A stretch of 32,042 nucleotides of DNA from Anaerolineae bacterium (lineage in GTDB: Bacteria; Chloroflexota; Anaerolineae; JACIWR01). Numbering within the stretch: the first letter of the stretch is position 1; each line of letters opens with the position of its first letter. Of the stretch, positions 19,142-23,751 are shown piece after piece. Position numbers and translations under genes: made by a program. The notes beneath the pieces are model-generated. The model saw only the letters and a list, made by a program, of their open reading frames with translations, had not been told where the DNA came from and ran no database searches. The stretch spans positions 1-32,042 of the forward strand of contig JACIWR010000006.1 of the NCBI GenBank assembly GCA_014360845.1, read 5' to 3'.

Positions 19142-19561
19142 TTATTCGCAAGAGCACGTACCGGCTTCTACCCACCAGCAATAAATATCGCAGCATCCCG
19201 TTGGACAGCGATCGGGGTCGTTGCAACAACGGTGACACCAGTGCTCCCAGTATTGATGCGTCTGGCAATCGCAGAAGCTCAGAGCCCGATAGTCCCAGCA
19301 GTAGGTATCGGGCTGTGGTGGAGCCACTGGGAGAGGAAATACCTCCAGCTTGTAGCGATCCGAGAGGTACTCCAGGGGTGCAGACTGTGGAGAAACATCC
19401 GGTGAATCGGGCGGCAGGAACGCTTCTATTCTGAATCGGCCCTGAAGGGGGTCCTGGGCCAATGCCGCTTGCACCGAGATGCCAGCAAGTAAGAATGCGG
19501 CCATCAGCATCACAGTGAGGACCATGAAGGTTCTTTTATGCGCTATATTGGATCCGAACAT
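19142..19561 (-). CDS. Exported small protein with 12-Cys, Trp/Tyr-rich C-terminus
   Basis: Sec-like signal MFGSNIAHKRTFMVLTVMLMAAFLLAGISVQAALA; C-terminus YCWDYRALSFCDCQTHQYWEHWCHRCCNDPDRCPTGCCDIYCWWVEAGTCSCE; GGAGGTGATT RBS before ATG. Confidence 0.82.
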   Translation of the reverse strand: MFGSNIAHKRTFMVLTVMLMAAFLLAGISVQAALAQDPLQGRFRIEAFLPPDSPDVSPQSAPLEYLSDRYKLEVFPLPVAPPQPDTYCWDYRALSFCDCQTHQYWEHWCHRCCNDPDRCPTGCCDIYCWWVEAGTCSCE

Positions 19562-19645
19562 CTGAATCACCTCCTTTCCGTCGGATTGTATAGAGTCTAT
19601 ACCCATACCCGTTCAGCACATCATCTTTCCCATCGAGAAACGAAA

Positions 19646-19738
19646 TGTATCTTCTCAATAATTTGGGGTAGGGGCAGGTCTTGCACCTGCCCGCCTGGGC
19701 GACCGCAAGGGTTCGCCCCTACATTTTGAGAAGATACA
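19646..19738. mobile_element. MITE-like element: 13-bp TIRs, inner GTAGGGGC/GCCCCTAC arms, candidate ACGAAA target-site duplication
   Basis: TGTATCTTCTCAA (19646-19658) / TTGAGAAGATACA (19726-19738), flanked by ACGAAA at 19640-19645 and 19739-19744. Confidence 0.75.
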
Positions 19739-19744
19739 ACGAAA

Positions 19745-20296
19745 TTACTGGCTTGTCTTGACCAGGTTTTCTAATTGCTCCAATGAGAGGGCTATGTCTC
19801 GGCTGACAATGTTTCCCTGCCGGTCTAGCAGGTAAAAGAAAGGGAAGGCCGGCACTTGGTACTCCCTCACCAACTCATCTTGCCCGCTCAGGACAGGGAA
19901 GGTAAGTCCTTCTTTACGAACTATTGTCGCGTTATCTTCTTGAGAGCCACGCGAGATAAGCAGGACAGCGATATCAGGATGCAGCTCCTGAAAATCCTTC
20001 AGAATAAGGTAAATTTGCGGGCAAGCAGGGCTTGTAGTAGAAGTGAAAGCAAGGAGCACCTGCCTTCCGGCGAAATCTCGGAGTGAAACGGACTGCCCTG
20101 TTGTGTCAGATAAAGTGAACAGGGGAGCGCGGGTTCCTACATTAAGGCCCATCGGCCTCTGGAAAGGTTCCAGCGCCTGGATGACACGGCTTTGTAATTG
20201 GTTCATCCGCACGAACAGGCCCAGGTTAGCTACCATCAATAAGATCACGATGCCCAGCAGCATCAAAATCAGTGTGTCAGTTTTAACTTTGTTCAT
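19745..20296 (-). CDS. Membrane-anchored redoxin/MauD-TlpA-like thioredoxin-fold protein
   Basis: N-terminal TM; VGTRAPLFTLSDTTGQSVSLRDFAGRQVLLAFTSTTSPACPQIYLILKDFQELHPDIAVLLIS; YQVPAFPFFYLLDRQGNIV (cis-Pro region). Only one Cys at the usual CxxC site. Confidence 0.85.
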   Translation of the reverse strand: MNKVKTDTLILMLLGIVILLMVANLGLFVRMNQLQSRVIQALEPFQRPMGLNVGTRAPLFTLSDTTGQSVSLRDFAGRQVLLAFTSTTSPACPQIYLILKDFQELHPDIAVLLISRGSQEDNATIVRKEGLTFPVLSGQDELVREYQVPAFPFFYLLDRQGNIVSRDIALSLEQLENLVKTSQ

Positions 20297-21189
20297 CGTG
20301 TGTCCCTTTTCAATGGCACCATTGATTGGGCGATCTTAAGCATCTCTTCATCTGAGAGGTTGGAGAGCATCACAACCTGGATGTCGTCGGTGTACCAAGT
20401 AAGCTGCTTCCCGTCTGTGTAGATGTAAACAGAAGAACAAGCGGATCCTTGTACTGCAAAGCTGGGAGTGAATTCGAATTTGCCCTGCAGGCCGGTCTTC
20501 AGGATACCTGGCTGACCGTTGATACTCACCTCCCTGCCAGTGGGTAGAGACCTCTCGGCAGAAGACCGGGTCTGGATGATGTCAACGAACCAGTCTTTTC
20601 CGGCATACGCCTGCCTGAAACCCTCCCCCTGGCCTTTGCCCTCGTCTTCCAGAGTGCACATGAGTTGGGCCGGCAGATAAGTCGGACGCAGAGGGGTAAA
20701 GTCCACGCCAGGAGATGGTATCCTGATCATGAACCTGCCACCAGGGACCTCAAAGTGGAATCGCTGGGCAATCACCTTCACTACTTGAGCCCTGATGGAA
20801 GGGACGAAAGCCATTGTCCCTGTGATAATGACCAGGGCCGCAACGAGGGCCAACGCGAATCTTTGTGTCAGAGCCATCCCTTCCCTCGGTTGACAGGCTT
20901 GTCTGACACGTCGAACGGCCAACGCCGGGCGTTGGAACCAAGAGGAGGAGCGCGACTCCCTCGCCAGCCTCGCCTGCAGGCGGCTCCAGGCCTGCGGAGA
21001 GGGGGCTACCTGAGCAGCCCTGACTCGCAGGAACTGACTGACCCGGCTCTGCAGTGCCGATAGAGCAGCCAATTCCTGTTGACAGGTATCACACCCGGCC
21101 AGATGGGTCTGCATTAACACCCGTTCAGAAGGCGTCACTTCATTGTCCAGATAAGCAACAAGCAATCTGTTCACTTCCTGACACCTCAT
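20293..21189 (-). CDS. Anti-sigma factor with zf-HC2 zinc finger and one TM
   Basis: MRCQEVNRLLVAYLDNEVTPSERVLMQTHLAGCDTCQQELAAL; TM near RFALALVAALVIITGTMAFV; overlaps upstream sigma gene. Confidence 0.88.
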   Translation of the reverse strand: MRCQEVNRLLVAYLDNEVTPSERVLMQTHLAGCDTCQQELAALSALQSRVSQFLRVRAAQVAPSPQAWSRLQARLARESRSSSWFQRPALAVRRVRQACQPREGMALTQRFALALVAALVIITGTMAFVPSIRAQVVKVIAQRFHFEVPGGRFMIRIPSPGVDFTPLRPTYLPAQLMCTLEDEGKGQGEGFRQAYAGKDWFVDIIQTRSSAERSLPTGREVSINGQPGILKTGLQGKFEFTPSFAVQGSACSSVYIYTDGKQLTWYTDDIQVVMLSNLSDEEMLKIAQSMVPLKRDTR

Positions 21190-21731
21190 CTTGCCGTCTC
21201 CTTCAGAGGACAGTTGCCCGGGGCTGTCCCCAGCTCCTTGCGCAGGGTTTTGAGCGCCAGGGCAAGCCGTGATTTGACCGTGCCTATGGGGATATTCAGG
21301 ATTTGAGCGATCTCAGCATATGACAGTCCCAGATAATAACGCAGGACTATAACTACGCGCAGTTTTTTGCTCAACCGACTCAATGCCTGCTGGACTGCTT
21401 CTTCGTTTTCCACTCGTCCCTGGAACGAGGGACGCTCGGCCAACAACGGAGAAACTCTGTCTAACGAGATGGAAAGACGACTTTTGCGCCGCCGATTCAG
21501 ACAATGGTTCACCGTGATGCGATACAGCCAGGTCGTGAAAGCCCCTTTCGCGGGCTCAAAGGTGGACAGCGATCTGTACACCCGGAGAAATACCTCCTGG
21601 AGCGCATCTTCGGCTTCATCAGCGCTGTCCAGCATCAGGTAAGCGATCTTATAGACCAGGTTTTTGTATTGATGAAAGAGAGCGGCGAAAGCCTCTTCAT
21701 CGCCTGCCTGACAACGGCGTATCAGGTCCAC
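21186..21731 (-). CDS. ECF-family RNA polymerase sigma factor
   Basis: DEAEDALQEVFLRVYRSLSTFEP region 2 and YYLGLSYAEIAQILNIPIGTVKSRLALALKTLRKEL region 4; GTG start after AAGGAGACGAGCC. Confidence 0.93.
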   Translation of the reverse strand: MDLIRRCQAGDEEAFAALFHQYKNLVYKIAYLMLDSADEAEDALQEVFLRVYRSLSTFEPAKGAFTTWLYRITVNHCLNRRRKSRLSISLDRVSPLLAERPSFQGRVENEEAVQQALSRLSKKLRVVIVLRYYLGLSYAEIAQILNIPIGTVKSRLALALKTLRKELGTAPGNCPLKETAR

Positions 21732-21867
21732 GGCTCGTCTCCTTGCGCTTGCAGTTCAAATAAATTGTACACCGTTTTCCAATCAAAAGTTCGGTAGCAT
21801 GAGGTGACAGTCGCTTGGAAAGTGACCGTCACCCGAACAGCGAGATATGTGGATGTAGTGGCGGACG

Positions 21868-21963
21868 GCCCTTCGACGAAGCTCAGGGCATGCCCTTCGA
21901 CGAAGCTCAGGACAGGCCCTTCGACGAAGCTCAGGACAGGCCCTTCGCCAGGGCTCAGGGCAT
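21868..21963. repeat. Four tandem 24-bp GCCCTTCGACGAAGCTCAGGRCAK units
   Basis: Units at 21868, 21892, 21916, 21940 (last one diverged). Confidence 0.92.
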
Positions 21964-22036
21964 GCCCTGTCCGCCCGGGAACGCGGCCACGGCGGGCCGC
22001 CGCTACGCCTTTGCACTAATTATACGAGGAGGAACG

Positions 22037-22876
22037 ATGAAACTGATTTGTCTGGTGGACAACGTCACCCTTCCCTACTCCCCCTTCTGGGGCGAGCACG
22101 GCCTGGCTTTCCTGGTGGAATCAGCCGAGGGCCGGGTGCTCTTCGACACGGGGGCCAGCGGGACCGTGCTCATGCACAATCTGGAGGTGGCGGGGATCGC
22201 CCCGGAAACGATAGACGCCCTGGCCATCAGCCACAGCCACCACGACCACACCGGTGGGCTGCCCAAATTCCTGGAACAACGCTCGGGCCTGCCGCTCTAT
22301 GCCAACCCCGATCTCTTGCGGGAGCGATTCTCACAGCGGGAAGGGAAAATGCGCTCCGTTGGCATACCGCTGGCCCCGGAGAAACTGCGCCAGTTGGCCG
22401 ACCTGCGCCTCAGCGCGGAGCCCCAGAAGGTCCTGCCCGGCATCTGGACCAGCGGCGAGATCACCGAGCGGCCCGAGCCGGAGGGCCGAAGCGCCCATCA
22501 TTTTGTCCGTGGCGAAAAGGGGTTGGAGCCGGACCCCTACCGGGACGACATGGCCCTGGTGTTGGAAACGGAGCGAGGGCTGGTGCTGCTCTGCGGCTGC
22601 TGTCACGCCGGCCTGCTTAACACCCTGGCCCACGTGGAGCAGGCGTTCCAGCGGCTGGTTGTGGCCATTATCGGCGGCACCCACCTCATCAGCGCCGACG
22701 CCGATCACCTGGAGCGCGTGCGCCAGAAGATGCTGGAGATGGAATCGGTGCGGCACATCTACCTGAACCACTGCTCCGGGGAGGCGGCCTTCTTCACCCT
22801 GATGATGACTCTGGGGCCTGGGGTGGTGCATTCCTGTCCGGCGGGGACGCAGATTGACCTGGAGGAGTTACAATGA
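22037..22876 (+). CDS. MBL-fold metallohydrolase (COG1237-like)
   Basis: VLFDTGASG, ISHSHHDHTGGL, CGCCHAGLLNTL, NHCSG; GAGGAGGAACG RBS. Confidence 0.88.
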   Translation: MKLICLVDNVTLPYSPFWGEHGLAFLVESAEGRVLFDTGASGTVLMHNLEVAGIAPETIDALAISHSHHDHTGGLPKFLEQRSGLPLYANPDLLRERFSQREGKMRSVGIPLAPEKLRQLADLRLSAEPQKVLPGIWTSGEITERPEPEGRSAHHFVRGEKGLEPDPYRDDMALVLETERGLVLLCGCCHAGLLNTLAHVEQAFQRLVVAIIGGTHLISADADHLERVRQKMLEMESVRHIYLNHCSGEAAFFTLMMTLGPGVVHSCPAGTQIDLEELQ

Positions 22877-23751
22877 TCGTCGCTGTAGCCAGCGGCAAAG
22901 GGGGCACGGGCAAAACCACGGTGGCCGTCAGCCTGGCGCTGAGTTTGCTGGAAGATAACTCCTCACCTGCCAGCAAACTGCTGTACCTGGATTGTGATGT
23001 GGAAGAGCCCAACGCTGCTCTTTTCCTAAAACCCGTCTTCGAACAGCGCGAGGAGGTAGGGATCCTCGTCCCGGAGGTGGATTTCGACAAATGTACCTAC
23101 TGCGGGCGCTGCGCCGAGGTCTGCCAATACCACGCCATCGCCGTCGTCGCCCAGAAGGTGCTCATCTTTCCTGAACTGTGCCATGGCTGCGGGAGTTGCA
23201 CCCTCAACTGCCCGGAAGGAGCCATCCACGAGGTGTTGAACGTGACGGGCGTGATCGAGATGGGGCACGCCGGTCCCCTCGCCTTCGGGCAAGGGGTGAT
23301 GAACGTGGGCCAAGCCATGGCCGTGCCCATCATCCGGCAATTGAAAAAGAAAGCCATCCCACCCGACCCATCACAGCAGGTGGTGATCCTCGATGCACCA
23401 CCCGGCACCTCGTGTCCGGTGGTGGAGAGCATGCGCGGAGCCGACTTCGTGTTGCTGGTCACCGAGCCTACCCCCTTCGGCCTGCACGACCTGCGCCTGG
23501 CCGTGGAAGTGGCCCGCGAGGAGTTGGGATTGCCCGTCGGCGTGGTGGTTAACCGCGACGGCGTGGGGGATCAAAGCGTGGACGAGTACTGCACCGCCGA
23601 AAACATCCCTATCCTGATGCGCATCCCCCTCGACCGGCGCATCGCCGAGGCGTACTCTGAGGGCGTGCCGCTGGTGAAGGCGTTGCCGGAGTACAGGGAG
23701 AAGTTTCGGGAGCTGTACAGAAAAATTCCATCTGTGCGGTTGACGATGTAG
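22873..23751 (+). CDS. MinD-superfamily P-loop ATPase with inserted 2x[4Fe-4S] ferredoxin domain
   Basis: ASGKGGTGKTTVAVSLAL; CTYCGRCAEVCQYHAI and CHGCGSCTLNCPEGAI; ILDAPPGTSCPVV. ATGA overlap with upstream gene. Confidence 0.93.
   Translation: MIVAVASGKGGTGKTTVAVSLALSLLEDNSSPASKLLYLDCDVEEPNAALFLKPVFEQREEVGILVPEVDFDKCTYCGRCAEVCQYHAIAVVAQKVLIFPELCHGCGSCTLNCPEGAIHEVLNVTGVIEMGHAGPLAFGQGVMNVGQAMAVPIIRQLKKKAIPPDPSQQVVILDAPPGTSCPVVESMRGADFVLLVTEPTPFGLHDLRLAVEVAREELGLPVGVVVNRDGVGDQSVDEYCTAENIPILMRIPLDRRIAEAYSEGVPLVKALPEYREKFRELYRKIPSVRLTM

What the first reader, a model, noticed from the sequence alone, without database searches (positions are those of the whole stretch)
19142..21731. ECF sigma / zf-HC2 anti-sigma / MauD-like redoxin / exported 12-Cys Trp-rich mini-protein as one minus-strand unit
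Seen: four co-oriented genes; sigma and anti-sigma overlap, anti-sigma and redoxin overlap, and the last gene has a signal peptide and exactly 12 Cys in its final ~53 residues, interspersed with Trp (CW, CWW) and Tyr. A terminator follows. Known: ECF/anti-sigma pairs usually regulate neighbouring envelope genes; MauD-type thioredoxin-fold proteins help mature the methylamine dehydrogenase light chain, which is small, exported, rich in disulfides and carries a Trp-derived cofactor. Inference: the redoxin may oxidise or isomerise the 12-Cys protein, which could be a disulfide-knotted exported protein or even a modified-Trp protein, under control of an envelope redox signal.
Basis: partly seen in the sequence, partly recalled or inferred. 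Interest (0 to 1): 0.74.

Follow-up and report, generated by a model that had tools for sequence, protein, structure and literature searches.

The report
Redoxin paired with secreted Cys-rich mini-protein
The four genes are real and belong to a widespread but apparently undescribed set of Chloroflexota gene cassettes, in which a membrane-tethered thioredoxin-like protein sits next to a small secreted protein with a shared leader and a highly variable cysteine-, tryptophan- and tyrosine-rich body.

Summary
In detail: ECF sigma, zf-HC2 anti-sigma, redoxin and an exported protein with 12 Cys in its last 52 residues, on one strand, ending in a terminator. Three corrections: the last gene probably starts at 19561; a mobile 91-bp MITE (at least 40 identical genomic copies) sits between redoxin and Cys gene; this redoxin has lost the first active-site Cys (SPAC; its 94%-identical relative has CPAC). 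Comparative genomics supports the main inference. A profile of this redoxin picks out a distinct Chloroflexota family, and all 10 independently found loci with enough flank carry a small exported Cys/Trp/Tyr-rich gene on the same strand (RecA control 2/30, both spurious-looking). These mini-proteins share a leader, but their mature parts are related only within small clusters. One locus also encodes MauE fused to a 10-Cys tail. ECF sigma/DUF4367 anti-sigma pairs accompany the Cys-rich gene in five loci; other loci have FtsX-type ABC transporters or tandem solute-binding proteins. Nothing supports a methylamine-dehydrogenase-type modified Trp. Best reading: a MauD-like disulfide-maturation module for diversified secreted mini-proteins. 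MauD/MauE with Cys-rich precursors has a published precedent as candidate RiPP families in Streptomyces.

The parts
21186..21731 (-). ECF sigma factor (GTG start)
   Evidence: Sigma70_r2 6.5e-22, Sigma70_r4_2 6.4e-19; closest NCBIfam model SigW, 135 bits, below its cut-off
21764..21792 (-). possible promoter of the sigma gene: GAACTT-N17-TACAAT, matched by GAACTT-N17-TATAAT in L001
   Evidence: read by eye from the upstream sequences; conserved in position although the spacer differs; not statistically tested
20293..21189 (-). membrane anti-sigma factor: N-terminal zf-HC2, one transmembrane stretch, C-terminal DUF4367 domain
   Evidence: zf-HC2 1.7e-10; DUF4367 1.8e-4, just over cut-off
19745..20296 (-). 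membrane-anchored MauD/ResA-type redoxin; active-site motif SPAC in place of CPAC
   Evidence: AhpC-TSA 1.3e-15; MauD model 8.1e-17 but below cut-off; AlphaFold model: N-terminal helix 2-45 plus thioredoxin fold, pLDDT 86; motif in alignment
19647..19737 (.). MITE inserted between redoxin and Cys gene; 12-bp terminal inverted repeats GTATCTTCTCAA/TTGAGAAGATAC, target duplication ATTTCGTT (19738-19745 and 19639-19646)
   Evidence: at least 40 identical 91-bp copies in the genome; empty site in L001
19142..19561 (-). exported Cys/Trp/Tyr-rich mini-protein, 139 aa: leader about 1-36, linker 37-85, 12-Cys core 86-139
   Evidence: strong Shine-Dalgarno sequence before the ATG at 19561, conserved in L001
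19086..19109 (-). intrinsic-terminator-like hairpin with T-run
   Evidence: 9 pairs, 8 GC

Best explanation
The unit is a dedicated maturation-and-control cassette for a secreted, disulfide-rich mini-protein. Shown by sequence: a leader-bearing protein with a 12-Cys core, a membrane-anchored MauD-like redoxin, and an ECF sigma/anti-sigma pair, with the redoxin/Cys-rich pairing recurring across Chloroflexota. Inferred: the mini-protein leaves through Sec; outside the membrane the tethered redoxin makes, proofreads or isomerises its disulfides, as proposed for MauD/MauE acting on the methylamine dehydrogenase light chain; the anti-sigma factor's outer domain reports an envelope or extracellular condition and releases sigma, which transcribes the cassette. 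The mature part is the variable, selected payload, most likely an extracellular effector or binding protein, and the FtsX-type ABC transporters or solute-binding proteins found in sister cassettes serve its export, reception or self-protection. In this genome the redoxin has lost one active-site Cys and a MITE separates the payload gene, so this copy may be partly degraded or may rely on another thiol enzyme.
For: Redoxin profile: 13 loci in 12 of 298 class genomes match at E<1e-37 and no others at E<=1e-22. All 10 independent family loci with enough flank, plus the seeds window, L001 and L002/L038, have a same-strand exported Cys-rich ORF next to the redoxin; RecA control 2/30, both 5-Cys ORFs of spurious look. 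Leaders are alike (72 of 153 pairs z>4) while mature parts are alike in 12 of 153 pairs; pooled mature composition C 16%, W 8%, Y 9%. A MauE domain fused to a 10-Cys tail lies in the same locus as redoxin, Cys protein and FtsX transporter in G693. MauD is the best-scoring NCBIfam model for the family and matches all 13 members. Sigma plus DUF4367 anti-sigma lie directly upstream of the Cys-rich gene or of the redoxin in the window, L001, L059, L062 and L036. All 12 Cys conserved in window, L001 and L002. Published precedent: Streptomyces candidate RiPP families with mauE/mauD homologues and precursors with at least 8 Cys (PMC7794033).
Against: The window's redoxin lacks the nucleophilic Cys (SPAC). 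No MauE or VKOR was found in the window's genome, which is about 90% complete. A same-genus genome lacks both the Cys gene and the redoxin. Sigma/anti-sigma is present in only part of the cassettes. No disulfide, expression or export has been measured. The AlphaFold model of the Cys protein is of middling confidence (pLDDT 59; core 70-78) and matched no solved fold. The sequences are draft metagenome assemblies as far as named.
Confidence: 0.62

Rival explanations
1. The mini-proteins are extracellular ligand- (for example glycan-) binding modules that work with the tandem SBP_bac_1 solute-binding proteins beside them in several loci; Trp/Tyr form the binding face and disulfides hold the small fold.
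For: Tandem sugar-type SBP genes adjoin Cys-rich genes in L037, L060/L095, L062 and probably L068; mature parts hold 8% Trp and 9% Tyr.
Against: Window, L001, L038, L059, L063 and L093 have no SBP seen next to the pair; no similarity to a known binding module in Pfam or PDB.
Confidence: 0.18
2. The mini-proteins are antagonistic peptides (bacteriocin-like), matured by the redoxin, with the FtsX/MacB-type transporter as exporter or immunity and ECF sigma as a competition sensor.
For: Conserved leader with diversified Cys-rich mature part; FtsX-type permease beside seven of the pairs, with an ABC ATPase in five of them; low-GC cassette and uneven divergence that suggest transfer.
Against: No immunity gene identified; no activity data; the core is acidic rather than cationic (9 D+E against 3 K+R); within cluster L063/L064 the core is better conserved than the leader.
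Confidence: 0.22
3. A methylamine-dehydrogenase-light-chain relative with a Trp-derived cofactor, as the first reader also suggested.
For: 12 Cys, Trp-rich, exported, MauD-like neighbour.
Against: No PF02975 match of the protein or above cut-off in the genome and five kin; hhalign probability 0.5% against the light chain.
Confidence: 0.02
4. The sigma/anti-sigma pair is only a chance neighbour; the functional unit is redoxin plus Cys protein alone.
For: Sigma and MBL genes diverged far more (dS 0.96 and 0.63) between window and L001 than redoxin and Cys gene (dS about 0.13); many cassettes have no sigma pair.
Against: Anti-sigma overlaps the redoxin in the window and shares its low divergence from L001 (92.7% DNA identity); three further genome families show sigma/anti-sigma directly upstream of Cys-rich genes, with anti-sigma and Cys gene overlapping (L059) or 8 bp apart (L062).
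Confidence: 0.2

Closest known systems
MauD/MauE and the methylamine dehydrogenase light chain (mau cluster)
   Same: Membrane-anchored redoxin of the same superfamily beside a small exported protein with many disulfide-capable Cys; one sister locus (G693) also has MauE, fused to a 10-Cys tail
   Different: Redoxin scores far below the MauD cut-off; no light chain found; MauE not found in the window's genome; Sec-type leader here; payload sequence unrelated to the light chain
Streptomyces mauE/mauD candidate RiPP families (decRiPPter, PMC7794033)
   Same: MauD/MauE homologues with a precursor of at least 8 Cys and no methylamine function
   Different: Chloroflexota; typical Sec leader; ECF sigma/anti-sigma, FtsX-type transporter or tandem SBP partners; mature part not shown to be cut or cross-linked. 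Compared with the paper's text only, not with its sequences
ECF sigma / zf-HC2 membrane anti-sigma pairs
   Same: Overlapping genes, region 2 and 4 domains, zinc-finger anti-sigma domain, membrane anchor
   Different: The outer DUF4367 domain has no known ligand; in three sister loci (L036, L059, L062) the anti-sigma shows DUF4367 but no zf-HC2 match
ResA/TlpA thiol-disulfide oxidoreductases
   Same: Membrane-anchored thioredoxin fold, CxxC in sister copies
   Different: Active site mostly CPAC/CPGC, SPAC in the window; neighbour is a Cys-rich mini-protein, not cytochrome c maturation genes

Membership tests
MauD (TIGR02661) | score above curated cut-off (188.6 bits) | tested here: not met
   61.3 bits for the window protein; it is the best model, and all 13 family members match it at E<=0.001
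MauD (TIGR02661) | redox-active CxxC | tested here: not met
   SPAC in the window; CxxC in all other family members
MauD (TIGR02661) | membrane anchor plus thioredoxin fold | tested here: met
   AlphaFold: helix 2-45, thioredoxin fold, pLDDT 86
MauD (TIGR02661) | encoded with methylamine dehydrogenase genes | tested here: not met
   no PF02975 above cut-off in own genome; the PF06433 search was uninformative, as it rang in no control genome
MADH light chain (PF02975) | sequence match to the family model | tested here: not met
   no match up to E=1; hhalign probability 0.5%
MADH light chain (PF02975) | tryptophan tryptophylquinone cofactor | not testable with these tools
   needs mass spectrometry
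ECF sigma factor with membrane anti-sigma | sigma regions 2 and 4; partner with anti-sigma domain | tested here: met
ECF sigma factor with membrane anti-sigma | anti-sigma binds and inhibits the sigma factor | not testable with these tools
   needs binding or reporter assay
mauE/mauD candidate RiPP (decRiPPter type) | precursor with at least 8 Cys beside a mauD homologue | tested here: met
   12 Cys; MauD-like redoxin next to it
mauE/mauD candidate RiPP (decRiPPter type) | mauE homologue in the cluster | tested here: not met
   none in the window's genome; present in the G693 locus
mauE/mauD candidate RiPP (decRiPPter type) | post-translational modification beyond disulfides | not testable with these tools
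   needs mass spectrometry
MITE (19647-19737) | short, terminal inverted repeats, target duplication, many copies | tested here: met

The most novel reading that the evidence does not exclude
A new class of leader-guided extracellular mini-proteins in Chloroflexota: one conserved leader and one dedicated MauD-like redoxin serve many unrelated Cys/Trp/Tyr-rich bodies, exchanged between lineages as cassettes and controlled by ECF sigma factors or protected/exported by FtsX-type transporters.
Probability: 0.4. Interest if true: 0.8.

Novelty: new variant of a known kind. Interest (0 to 1): 0.6.

Why it matters
If the pairing is functional, it shows that MauD-type redoxins, known from the maturation of one enzyme, are general folding partners for diversified secreted disulfide-rich proteins. 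It also gives a genomic handle (redoxin neighbour plus leader) to find small secreted proteins that ordinary annotation misses, in a phylum whose secretion biology is little known. The mature parts are a library of natural, very dense disulfide folds (up to 13 Cys in about 60 residues).

Tried and rejected
Modified-Trp/MADH light chain: no match by Pfam, profile comparison or genome search. Structure search of the Cys protein: nothing above noise (best E 1.6 in the fold search). Viral contigs: no relative. The first intended control, other MauD/TlpA-like redoxins of the phylum, proved not to be a clean negative: 6 of 20 also have exported Cys-rich neighbours, several with a twin-arginine-like leader, so RecA loci were used instead. 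The radical SAM gene in L062 was considered as a modifying enzyme for the mini-proteins; it is closest to HxsB of the His-Xaa-Ser system (306 bits, cut-off 370), was seen in one locus only, and was not pursued. Cys-profile hits with E between 0.002 and 0.1 in the class search: those held as loci carry neither a qualifying exported Cys-rich ORF at the match nor the redoxin; the one real member among the weak hits is the L062 copy, recognised from its locus.

Full report
What is there. The minus strand of 19142-21731 holds four co-oriented genes: an ECF sigma factor, a zf-HC2/DUF4367 membrane anti-sigma factor, a membrane-anchored redoxin and an exported protein with 12 Cys in its last 52 residues. 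The first two junctions are 4-base overlaps. A 9-pair hairpin with a T-run closes the unit. The last gene most likely starts at 19561, after AAAGGAGGTGATTCAG; both the ribosome site and the start are conserved in the relative L001.

First, a 91-bp element with 12-bp terminal inverted repeats and an 8-bp target duplication lies between redoxin and Cys gene. At least 40 identical copies are in the genome (the search scored 40 of 152 candidates), and L001 has the empty site: a recent MITE. Second, the redoxin's active site reads SPAC. L001, 94% identical, has CPAC, and every other family member keeps CxxC. A real C-to-S change removes the nucleophilic thiol; a sequence error cannot be excluded without reads.

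Horizontal signal. Anti-sigma, redoxin and Cys gene of window and L001 (different families of one class) are 92-95% identical in DNA, whereas sigma and the neighbouring MBL gene are 76-77% identical (dS 0.96 and 0.63 against about 0.13 for redoxin and Cys gene). The four genes have 50-56% GC against 64-67% in the flanking genes. A same-genus genome lacks both the Cys gene and the redoxin. This fits a cassette moved or exchanged between lineages.

Selection on the Cys core. Between window and L001 the 54-codon core has 6 amino-acid and 1 silent change; none of them hits a Cys or Trp. L002 keeps all 12 Cys as well. A divergent member, L037, lacks C3, C6, C8 and one of C11/C12; another, L062b, lacks C2, C3, C11 and C12. 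The simplest reading, an inference, is that C6-C8 and {C2,C3}-{C11,C12} are disulfide pairs. The AlphaFold model has a three-stranded core at pLDDT 70-78 but is too weak overall to test this.

The redoxin leads to the system. A profile of three redoxins found 13 hits in 12 of 298 class genomes at E between 1e-109 and 1e-37, and no others at E<=1e-22. Reading the neighbourhoods showed small exported Cys-rich proteins beside them that the Cys profile had not found, because their mature parts are different. With one criterion (ORF of at most 230 aa, hydrophobic stretch, at least 5 Cys and over 5% Cys behind it, within 1500 bp), all 10 independent family loci with enough downstream sequence score, all on the redoxin's strand (L059, L060, L061, L062, L063, L064, L065, L066, L068, L070/L093; L067 ends at the contig edge). 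Thirty RecA loci gave 2 hits, both with 5 Cys and no convincing leader. By hand, 10/10 against 2/30 gives a hypergeometric probability of about 8e-8. The criterion was set after seeing the first loci, and some loci come from the same genome family, so this number is a guide only.

Leader and payload. Leaders are recognisably related in 72 of 153 pairs (z>4), mature parts in 12 of 153 (z>5), falling into three clusters: window/L001/L038/L037/L062b, L063/L064, and L060a/L094. Pooled mature composition is 16% Cys, 8% Trp and 9% Tyr. Within L063/L064 the core looks better conserved than the leader, so the bodies are under constraint within a cluster.

Partners. (a) ECF sigma and DUF4367 anti-sigma directly before redoxin or Cys gene: window, L001, L059, L062, L036; in L036 the Cys gene is a remnant at a contig end, with an internal stop. 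(b) FtsX-type permease: L038, L059, L096, L063, L064, L098, L093, with an ABC ATPase seen in all of these but L063 and L064. (c) Tandem SBP_bac_1 proteins: L037, L060/L095, L062, and weakly L068. (d) In G693 a MauE domain (67 bits, cut-off 27) is fused to a tail with 10 Cys, about 2 kb upstream of redoxin, Cys protein, permease and ATPase. This natural fusion is the strongest single hint that Mau-type redox proteins act on such Cys-rich domains. VKOR is present in 6 of 13 genomes, not in the window's.

How it most likely works. Shown: gene pairing, leaders, Cys conservation, domain content. Inferred: Sec export, disulfide formation or proofreading by the tethered redoxin, control by ECF sigma through the anti-sigma factor's outer domain. 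Unknown: the payload's job. Binding together with SBPs, and antagonism with an FtsX transporter as exporter or immunity, are both open.

Comparison with what is known. It works like MauD/MauE on the methylamine dehydrogenase light chain, but is not a member of MauD by the curated model, and the payload is not a light chain. The nearest published idea is the decRiPPter study, which reported Streptomyces candidate RiPP families with mauE/mauD homologues and precursors of at least 8 Cys (PMC7794033). My literature searches found no description of the Chloroflexota cassettes; the held library is partial.

Limits. The genomes are drafts, mostly or all metagenome assemblies; samples are even draws from larger groups; export and disulfides are predictions. 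The decisive tests are biochemical.

Noticed in passing
window 19647-19737: A 91-bp MITE with at least 40 identical copies in this genome; a very recently active element.
   Followed up: partly
L062 6642-7769 (-): Radical SAM/SPASM gene closest to HxsB (His-Xaa-Ser system) amid tandem SBP genes and two Cys-rich mini-protein genes; its N-terminal part seems missing or frameshifted.
   Followed up: partly
L093 7569-8510 (-): MauE domain naturally fused to a C-terminal tail with 10 Cys.
   Followed up: partly
L075 41-616 (+): Protein with a PqqD-like N-terminal region (by eye), a twin-arginine-like leader and a Cys-rich tail, next to a MauD/TlpA-like redoxin; L078, L088 and L089 show similar twin-arginine Cys-rich neighbours.
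   Followed up: no
L095 8325-9252 (+): Second Cys-rich gene followed by a second, divergent redoxin (CEAC) in the same contig, between tandem SBP genes.
   Followed up: no
window 21809-21960: Array of short repeats (CCTGAGCTTCGTCGAAGGGC) upstream of the sigma gene, and a GTGACNNTCAC inverted motif that also recurs in L001.
   Followed up: no
window 21815-23751 (+): MBL-fold hydrolase and a ParA/Mrp-type ATPase with inserted 4Fe-4S domain, divergent from the sigma gene; the MBL gene is also beside the cassette in L001.
   Followed up: no
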